This document shows, piece by piece, positions 61,625 through 62,011 of a stretch of 64,000 bases of DNA; the first letter of the stretch is position 1; each line of letters opens with the position of its first letter. The stretch lies in contig NC_134703.1 of NCBI RefSeq assembly GCF_043290135.1, positions 126,736,005-126,800,004 on the forward strand. The letters run 5' to 3'. The DNA comes from Rhipicephalus microplus (lineage: Eukaryota; Arthropoda; Arachnida; Ixodida; Ixodidae). The notes beneath the pieces are model-generated. The model ran no database searches and was not told the origin of the DNA. It saw only the letters and a program-made list of their open reading frames with translations. Both the position numbers and the translations under genes were made by a program.

Positions 61625-61630
61625 CTTACC
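61625..61630 (-). promoter_or_regulatory. 5' splice donor of the homeobox exon
   Basis: Read on the minus strand, the sequence is ACAG|GTAAG, a near-consensus eukaryotic donor. It comes directly before the frame's stop codon, which explains why the reading frame appears to end here. The exon would leave in phase 2. Confidence 0.75.
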
Positions 61631-62011
61631 TGTCAGTTTGCAGTGTGCTGTTGATCGGGCACTCCCAGGTACTCTGAGGTGACTCAGGGATACCCTGGGG
61701 TGACCCCAGTGTACTTTGCGGTGATCCCGAATCTCCACTTTTCTGCGACTCGTCATCCGTAAACTGTTCTGGGGATGACGCTGCGCAGATGCGCCGGGAT
61801 TCCTTCTTTAACTTCATGCGCCTGTTTTGGAACCAGACCTTGACCTGTTGTTGGGACAGGTTCAACGCATTGGCCAGCTGTGCTCGACGTGTGGAGCACA
61901 AGTACTTGTTGTAGCGGAACTCGACCTCCATGTGAAACAGCTGTTCCCGCGTGTATACCGTTCTCGGCCGCTTAAAGCCCTCGGATTTGTTGCCGCCTTG
62001 TGCAGTGTCAC
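61630..62011 (-). CDS. Internal exon of an ANTP-class homeobox gene, Hox3/zen-like
   Basis: This exon encodes a sequence-specific DNA-binding transcription factor that would act in the nucleus. The frame carries a full 60-residue homeodomain at 61797-61976. Recognition helix 3 reads QVKVWFQNRRMKLKK, with W48, F49, Q50, N51 and R53 all present, and the N-terminal arm is KRPRTVYT. The stretch NKYLC at positions 23-27 and MKLKK at 54-58 resemble the Hox2/pb and Hox3/zen groups. Position 16 is M instead of the usual L, and the helix 2-3 turn is SQQQ instead of the usual T-E-R-Q, so it is diverged. After the homeodomain comes a Ser/Pro/Gln-rich tail with repeated SPQ motifs. The exon starts after an AG at 62013-62012 and ends before a GTAAG donor at 61629-61625. 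The in-frame TAA at 61628 lies in the intron, so the true 3' exon is elsewhere. No YPWM motif is visible; it would lie in an upstream exon. The homeobox call is firm, the orthology is tentative. Confidence 0.9.
61797..61976 (-). other. Homeodomain-coding segment
   Basis: These 180 bp encode homeodomain residues 1 to 60. R5, Y8, F20, Y25, W48, F49, N51 and R53 are at their canonical positions. Gln at position 50 is typical of Hox and ParaHox factors that bind TAAT(T/G)(A/G) sites. R3 and R5 in the arm support minor-groove contact. No intron interrupts the homeobox. Confidence 0.92.

What the first reader, a model, noticed from the sequence alone, without database searches (positions are those of the whole stretch)
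61630..62011. Diverged Hox3/zen-like homeobox exon, the only firm gene in 64 kb
The homeodomain is complete, with canonical splice signals on both sides. It departs from the highly conserved Hox consensus at several normally fixed places (M16, SQQQ turn, R21-Y22). NKYLC and MKLKK point to the Hox2/Hox3-zen group. Fast-evolving Hox3 paralogues are known in arthropods (zen, bicoid, lepidopteran Shx). A tick gene of this type would bear on how extra-embryonic patterning genes arose.
Basis: partly seen in the sequence, partly recalled or inferred. Interest (0 to 1): 0.85.

Follow-up and report, generated by a model that had tools for sequence, protein, structure and literature searches.

The report
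Fast-changing tick Hox3 gene
This is most likely a tick's single Hox3 body-plan gene, sitting intact in its usual place in the Hox cluster, but its normally near-frozen DNA-binding domain has changed fast even between tick species of one genus, so it is a real but moderate surprise about how a master developmental gene drifts or takes on a new role.

Summary
The window lies in an unnamed 3.26 Gb genome of a tick very close to Rhipicephalus microplus. The gene sits between proboscipedia and Deformed, on the same strand, in an ordered Hox cluster; no conventional Hox3 was seen among the homeodomains read. I found exon 1 with the FPWM hexapeptide 22 kb upstream and a third exon inside the window (56772-56487). 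The three join in phase to a 426-residue protein with one terminal stop: not a broken frame. Position makes it the Hox3 orthologue; homeodomain trees alone cannot separate Hox2, Hox3 or other classes, and the Hox3-diagnostic S10 is lost. The homeodomain differs at 11-12 of 60 sites from two other Rhipicephalus species, while the same genome's pb homeodomain equals a psyllid's at 60 of 60. Hox3 is therefore evolving exceptionally fast here. A zen-like extra-embryonic role is possible, but nothing tested supports it, and published spider Hox3 expression speaks against it. Best reading: a functional, single-copy, fast-evolving Hox3 under relaxed constraint.

The parts
61630..62011 (-). Exon 2 of the tick Hox3 gene (homeodomain exon), phase 1 acceptor and phase 2 donor
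   Evidence: Sequence; R. microplus P0010 agrees with both exon ends; in-frame join with exons 1 and 3
61797..61976 (-). 60-residue homeodomain, W48 F49 Q50 N51 R53 M54 kept; three-helix fold predicted
   Evidence: Pfam, alignments, AlphaFold2 block pLDDT 96-97 over model residues 21-70
61624..61629 (-). Splice donor GTAAGC of exon 2; its TAA is in frame, which would explain database models of R. microplus (P0002) and R. sanguineus (P0012) ending DR and DK here
   Evidence: Sequence, protein ends; DNA of R. sanguineus not seen
56487..56772 (-). Exon 3: acceptor TACTAACACACGCAG|C, 95 residues in the same phase, ends in TGA
   Evidence: tblastn with R. appendiculatus P0011 residues 175-279, 61% identity over a stretch that runs past the stop, 1.5e-32; frame and join
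47220..47369 (-). Relic of a fourth exon: matches P0011 residues 297-324, but the part before that lies in another frame; downstream of the exon-3 stop, so probably no longer translated
   Evidence: tblastn 6.5e-6, 68% at 47319-47227; frames

Best explanation
It is the tick's single-copy Hox3 (Hox paralogue group 3), still in its ancestral place between proboscipedia and Deformed, encoded by three exons as a 426-residue protein with an FPWM hexapeptide and an Antennapedia-class homeodomain. It most likely works as a Hox-type transcription factor: the homeodomain reads a TAAT-core site through R5, V47, Q50, N51 and M54, and the hexapeptide docks the Exd/Pbx cofactor (both from general knowledge of the class). 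It probably still contributes to prosomal segment identity, but under strongly relaxed constraint, so the homeodomain, hexapeptide and C-terminus are drifting within the genus. Shown: position, orientation, intact frame, divergence, no other Hox3 among the homeodomains read. Inferred: DNA and cofactor binding, expression, and relaxed constraint rather than positive selection.
For: Cluster on C4, all - strand: lab 126.229, pb 126.539, this gene 126.798, Dfd 127.472, Scr 128.006, ftz 128.101, Antp 130.422, Ubx-like 130.867, Abd-B 132.127 Mb, with second copies of Dfd, Scr and ftz at 129.0-129.6 Mb that look like a second haplotype. Ixodes keeps one Hox3 (PMC8664421 passage), about 490 kb from Dfd (PMC5535294 passage); here about 650 kb. 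None of 23 distinct homeodomains read from the loci held, this one included, is a conventional Hox3. Exon 1 with FPWM plus exons 2 and 3 join with one terminal stop. Against R. sanguineus the homeodomain keeps 48 of 60, the part of exon 2 after it 30 of 55: still constrained where it matters. The three Rhipicephalus homeodomains form one supported group whose nearest rows by path are Hox3. Long branches of tick homeodomains were noted before in an Ixodes survey (PMC6107062 passage). Some mites are reported without Hox3 or zen (PMC4862073, PMC6902594 passages), which fits a dispensable gene.
Against: The homeodomain by itself does not say Hox3: 3 of 13 Hox3-versus-Hox2 sites go each way and 7 fit neither; R. 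appendiculatus leans to Hox2 (5 to 2). S10, reported as unique to Hox3 orthologues (PMC4207634 passage), is R here. AU tests reject none of the placements tried, and with R. sanguineus as the only tick row the Dfd-to-Ubx placement cost least. No transcript, no codon-level test of selection, and no expression pattern could be obtained. miR-993 could not be mapped because the genome search stopped answering.
Confidence: 0.68

Rival explanations
1. The gene is Hox3 by descent but has left Hox duty and taken a new role, as insect zen did; fast change reflects adaptive neofunctionalisation, perhaps in extra-embryonic tissue, germ line or another tick-specific site.
For: Rate of change: 48-49 of 60 identical to two species of the same genus, 33-35 of 60 to 11 conventional Hox3. 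R. sanguineus has YQWM where this species has FPWM, suggesting a loosened hexapeptide. Insect zen shows that Hox3 can do this (PMC4207634, PMC9574639 passages).
Against: No expression or selection data. Chelicerate Hox3 studied so far is expressed in prosomal segments, in some species also behind them (PMC3766265 passage), and not in spider extra-embryonic tissue (PMC9574639 passage). Hexapeptide kept in this species.
Confidence: 0.2
2. It is a diverged tandem duplicate of pb or Dfd that took the slot after Hox3 was lost, as Hox3 was lost in some mites.
For: NKYLC, V45 and V47 are shared with pb; R10 is shared with Dfd, Scr, ftz and Antp. AU tests do not reject clades with Hox2 (p 0.315) or Dfd (p 0.229). 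R. appendiculatus has 5 Hox2 against 2 Hox3 diagnostic residues.
Against: It sits exactly in the Hox3 slot, and the tick Ixodes keeps one Hox3, about 490 kb from Dfd (PMC8664421, PMC5535294 passages). R. sanguineus, which breaks fewest invariant sites, keeps the Hox3 residues M34, N39, I45, K58, though also four Hox2 ones. The nearest rows by path are Hox3.
Confidence: 0.08
3. A decaying pseudogene.
For: A stop ends exon 3 where R. appendiculatus reads on, and the fourth exon is frameshifted.
Against: Exons 1-3 form one open 426-residue frame with matching phases and canonical sites; homeodomain conserved more than its flanks across species; the C-terminal loss is behind the homeodomain; predicted fold normal.
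Confidence: 0.04

Closest known systems
Tick Hox3 (Ixodes scapularis; Rhipicephalus database proteins P0010, P0011, P0012)
   Same: Single Hox3 on the Hox scaffold in Ixodes (paper passages) as here; R. microplus orthologue 98% identical in the matched part.
   Different: Database labels call it 'Hox-A1-like' or 'hypothetical'. The Ixodes Hox3 homeodomain was not obtained, so when the acceleration began is unknown.
Insect zen, Drosophila bicoid, lepidopteran Shx
   Same: Hox3-derived, rapidly diverging homeodomain near pb.
   Different: No extra paralogue found here; in the ancestral slot with an FPWM hexapeptide; no evidence of a serosal or maternal role. Compared from paper passages and general knowledge, not by sequence here.
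Spider Hox3-A (diverged duplicate after genome duplication)
   Same: Chelicerate Hox3 with a strongly diverged homeodomain (PMC8664421 passage).
   Different: There a second copy relaxes; here no second copy was found.
Conventional Hox3 of Euperipatoides, Priapulus, spiralians, vertebrates (11 rows)
   Same: Homeodomain, and a hexapeptide roughly 25-41 residues before it (32 in R. microplus and R. sanguineus).
   Different: Those homeodomains are at least 50 of 60 identical to one another (mean 55.8) but only 33-35 of 60 to this one.

Membership tests
Hox3 (Hox paralogue group 3) | Lies between pb/Hox2 and Dfd/Hox4 in the same transcriptional orientation | tested here: met
   pb 126.539, this gene 126.798, Dfd 127.472 Mb, all - strand, no other homeobox match listed between them
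Hox3 (Hox paralogue group 3) | ANTP-class homeodomain with a hexapeptide upstream | tested here: met
   PF00046 1.8e-20; FPWM in exon 1
Hox3 (Hox paralogue group 3) | No other Hox3 in the genome | tested here: inconclusive
   Of 34 matches, 26 were read and none besides this gene is a Hox3; the 8 unread match at 35-46% identity. One search scored only 150 of 303 candidates and gave loci for 30 of its 103 matches
Hox3 (Hox paralogue group 3) | S10, reported as unique to Hox3 orthologues (a diagnostic residue; the group itself is defined by descent) | tested here: not met
   R10 in all three Rhipicephalus homeodomains; statement from PMC4207634 passage
Hox3 (Hox paralogue group 3) | Homeodomain groups with Hox3 in a tree | tested here: inconclusive
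   Nearest rows by path are Hox3, but no clade; AU p 0.445 with Hox3, 0.315 with Hox2, 0.273 with both; with R. sanguineus as the only tick row 0.296 Hox3, 0.325 Hox2, 0.409 Dfd-to-Ubx
Hox3 (Hox paralogue group 3) | miR-993 between it and Dfd | not tested
   The genome search did not answer for RF00104; the window and the next 20 kb hold no miRNA match at Rfam thresholds, which covers little of the interval
Hox3 (Hox paralogue group 3) | Embryonic expression in prosomal segments | not testable with these tools
   No RNA data
zen / bicoid / Shx | Role in extra-embryonic membranes or maternal axis | not testable with these tools
   No RNA or functional data
zen2 / bicoid / Shx | Extra Hox3-derived copy beside another | tested here: not met
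   One homeobox match in the pb-Dfd interval
Hox2 (pb) duplicate | Hox2 residues L4 N10 T11 L14 K24 I34 D39 V45 V47 H56 R58 Q59 T60 | tested here: not met
   3 of 13 (K24, V45, V47) in this species; a conventional pb lies about 253 kb from exon 3
Non-Hox ANTP class (Gbx, Pdx) | Groups with that class | tested here: inconclusive
   Held-together trees 6.9 and 6.7 log units worse, AU p 0.294 and 0.258; genomic place argues against

The most novel reading that the evidence does not exclude
In Rhipicephalus ticks, Hox3 has independently followed a zen-like path while remaining single-copy in the cluster: it has left Hox duty for a new, fast-evolving developmental role (possibly extra-embryonic), giving a second natural case for how a Hox gene stops being one without prior duplication.
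Probability: 0.15. Interest if true: 0.75.

Novelty: new member of a known kind. Interest (0 to 1): 0.5.

Why it matters
Hox homeodomains are among the most conserved protein sequences in animals. Here one of an in-cluster gene with no second copy found differs at about a fifth of its sites within one tick genus, while its neighbour pb matches a psyllid's at every site. Insects show that Hox3 can become zen and bicoid, and some mites are reported to have lost it. Ticks with living intermediates (R. sanguineus breaks 3 of 32 invariant sites, R. appendiculatus 6, this species 7) make it testable whether relaxed constraint comes before loss or new function. It also shows a mislabelled gene: database models call it 'Hox-A1-like' or 'hypothetical'.

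Tried and rejected
Rejected: homeodomain tree as proof of class (60 columns, unresolved, bootstrap not settled). Rejected: the 132-aa single-exon reading with ATG at MVAAGD (P0002): in the spliced model its first four codons lie in the intron before the acceptor, and the closing TAA lies in the donor. Not accepted as part of the gene: the last exon of the R. microplus model (P0010 residues 268-326, match at 36506-36330); no link or phase shown. Judged unlikely: pseudogene. Fell short: apart from Rhipicephalus proteins, none of the proteins listed carries a chelicerate label (many carry no label); one search listed 120 of 7897 matches, mostly vertebrate. Rfam on the window and 20 kb beyond gave one tRNA-like match only. 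No dN/dS: relatives came as proteins only. Literature searches listed no paper whose title or shown abstract start describes Rhipicephalus Hox3 divergence; most listed papers were not opened, and one search found only two papers holding Hox3, Rhipicephalus and homeodomain, neither opened. Of 13 papers opened, passages found by term were seen, never a whole text.

Full report
WHAT IS THERE. The stated exon exists at the stated coordinates. On the - strand, 62011-61630 is bounded by CGCTGCAG|GT and CTGACAG|GTAAGC and encodes a complete homeodomain (61976-61797; PF00046 1.8e-20; PDB homeodomain matches). Against 32 columns invariant in 22 Hox homeodomains (7 of this genome, 11 Hox3, 5 Hox2, with pb of this genome counted in both), this one breaks 7, R. 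appendiculatus 6 and R. sanguineus 3.

WHOSE IT IS. The nearest proteins are R. microplus P0002 (132 aa, 'hypothetical') and P0010 (326 aa, 'Hox-A1-like'), each 122 of 125 identical over the compared part of exon 2 and 60 of 60 in the homeodomain. The window is C4:126736005-126800004 of an unnamed 3.26 Gb assembly. It is thus R. microplus or a very close species; the name comes from database labels of relatives, not from the window.

WHERE IT SITS. A protein search of the whole assembly (92 candidates, all scored, 34 matches) and the open frames read from the loci give, all on the - strand of C4: lab 126.229, pb 126.539, this gene 126.798, Dfd 127.472, Scr 128.006, ftz 128.101, Antp 130.422, Ubx-like 130.867, Abd-B 132.127 Mb. 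Second copies of Dfd, Scr and ftz lie at 128.996, 129.505 and 129.599 Mb, 91-97% identical in DNA, probably an uncollapsed haplotype. The gene names are my reading of the homeodomains (recalled consensus). The gene is therefore in the Hox3 slot. In Ixodes, papers report no duplicated Hox gene (PMC8664421, passage), a cluster on one scaffold (PMC4862073, passage) and about 490 kb between Dfd and Hox3 (PMC5535294, passage); here exon 1 is about 650 kb from the Dfd homeobox. Of the 34 matches, 26 were read and none besides this gene is a Hox3; the other 8 match at 35-46%. A Pfam homeodomain search gave 103 matches (150 of 303 candidates scored, loci for 30). Of all loci held, 23 distinct homeodomains, this one included, could be read by pattern and none is a conventional Hox3; three of the homeodomain loci (L054, L057, L058) gave none by that pattern.

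THE WHOLE GENE. R. microplus and R. sanguineus proteins carry a hexapeptide upstream (FPWM; YQWM). I found that exon at C4:126820931-126820319, 22.3 kb above exon 2. R. appendiculatus P0011 led to a third exon inside the window, 56772-56487: 61% identity over P0011 175-279 (a match that also runs past the stop), 1.5e-32, with acceptor TACTAACACACGCAG|C. Exons 1, 2 and 3 join in phase to 426 residues with a single, terminal stop. In this species exon 3 ends in TGA where P0011 reads on, and the fourth exon (near 47369-47220) is out of frame. The simplest reading is a lineage-specific shorter C-terminus with a relic behind it. Database models P0002 and P0012 end DR and DK here; in this genome the donor GTAAG gives an in-frame TAA, which would explain it.

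WHICH CLASS. By homeodomain alone it cannot be classed. It is 33-35 of 60 identical to 11 Hox3 and 33-34 of 60 to 5 Hox2 homeodomains. Of 13 sites that separate these Hox3 from Hox2 sequences, this species has 3 Hox3, 3 Hox2, 7 neither; R. sanguineus 4, 4, 5; R. appendiculatus 2, 5, 6. In the tree the three Rhipicephalus rows group together (100/99), nearest by path to Hox3, but AU tests do not reject a clade with Hox3 (p 0.445), Hox2 (0.315), both (0.273), Dfd (0.229), Dfd-to-Ubx (0.31), lab (0.227), Gbx (0.294) or Pdx (0.258). With R. sanguineus as the only tick row, the Dfd-to-Ubx placement costs least (1.2 log units; p 0.409), then Hox2 3.7 and Hox3 4.1. That goes against a simple Hox3 signal. 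S10, called unique to Hox3 orthologues in PMC4207634 (passage), is R10 here. Descent is what defines the group, and position, strand, copy number and the Ixodes precedent carry the case; S10 counts as a failed diagnostic.

HOW FAST. Own versus R. sanguineus 48 of 60; own versus R. appendiculatus 49; R. sanguineus versus R. appendiculatus 44. The 11 Hox3 references, from onychophoran to vertebrates, are at least 50 of 60 identical to one another (mean 55.8), and this genome's pb homeodomain is 60 of 60 identical to Diaphorina pb. Constraint is not gone: against R. sanguineus the homeodomain keeps 48 of 60, the exon-2 part after it 30 of 55; against R. appendiculatus 49 of 60 and 38 of 55, with a 35-residue insertion there. 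AlphaFold2 gives a regular three-helix homeodomain, block pLDDT 96-97 over residues 21-70 of the 126-residue model, low outside it.

HOW IT PROBABLY WORKS. Residues that touch DNA in Antp-class homeodomains (R3, R5, V47, Q50, N51, R53, M54; recalled) are kept or conservative, so a TAAT-core reader is the plain expectation, with Exd/Pbx docking through FPWM in this species. Chelicerate Hox3 is expressed in pedipalp and leg segments, more widely in some (PMC3766265, passage), and in spiders not in dorsal field or contra-orbital cells (PMC9574639, passage). The mites Tetranychus, Metaseiulus and Neoseiulus are reported without Hox3 or zen (PMC4862073, PMC6902594, passages). Relaxed constraint on a still Hox-like gene is therefore the best reading; new function is open.

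WHAT IS KNOWN. Long branches of several tick homeodomains are noted in PMC6107062, an Ixodes-based survey (passage), diverged Hox3-A copies in spiders in PMC8664421 (passage). Fast Hox3 is thus a known kind; this is a new member, notable for being in place, without a second copy found, and fast within one genus. My seven literature searches (listed in Tried and rejected) showed no title or abstract start on it, but the library is limited to open licences and most hits were not opened.

Noticed in passing
G000 C4:127471508/128995994, 128005577/129504681, 128101021/129599234 (L013-L018): Dfd, Scr and ftz each appear twice about 1.5 Mb apart in the same order, 91-97% identical over about 2.5 kb: probably an uncollapsed second haplotype in the assembly, not a real Hox duplication.
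   Followed up: partly
G000 C4:130.87-132.13 Mb: Between the Ubx-like gene and Abd-B no further homeodomain, hence no abd-A, was listed. Assembly gap, unscored candidate or real loss; not checked because the genome search stopped answering.
   Followed up: no
G000 C4:128005577 (L005, L014): A Scr-type homeodomain is present, while PMC6902594 (passage) suggests Scr was lost in Parasitiformes including Ixodes.
   Followed up: no
window 10949-11587 and 52807-53434: Two arrays of a related 147-bp tandem repeat, 4.3 copies each, about 76% alike between arrays.
   Followed up: partly
window 24119-24356, 52392-52617, 57402-57638, 34784-34994: Four copies of a 210-240 bp element with a tRNA-like head (Rfam tRNA 33.4 bits at 24120-24192, ARAGORN none): probably a tRNA-derived SINE; shorter related pieces near 29898 and 31185.
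   Followed up: partly
window 56750-56956 and 57694-57900: A 207-bp direct duplication, 99.5% identical, that includes the exon-3 acceptor and first bases of exon 3 and flanks a copy of that element; a decoy acceptor may exist upstream.
   Followed up: no
window 60173-61192 and 17811-18298: Two large fold-back elements (inverted arms about 80% alike), the first in the intron just behind the homeodomain exon.
   Followed up: no
window 36330-36506: 86% protein-level match to the last exon of the R. microplus 'Hox-A1-like' model; no Pfam domain, link to this gene unproven.
   Followed up: partly
L011 and L012, G000 C4 about 126806-126811 kb: Open frames of 1203 and 439 codons in the first intron look like parts of a retroelement (my reading; not searched).
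   Followed up: no
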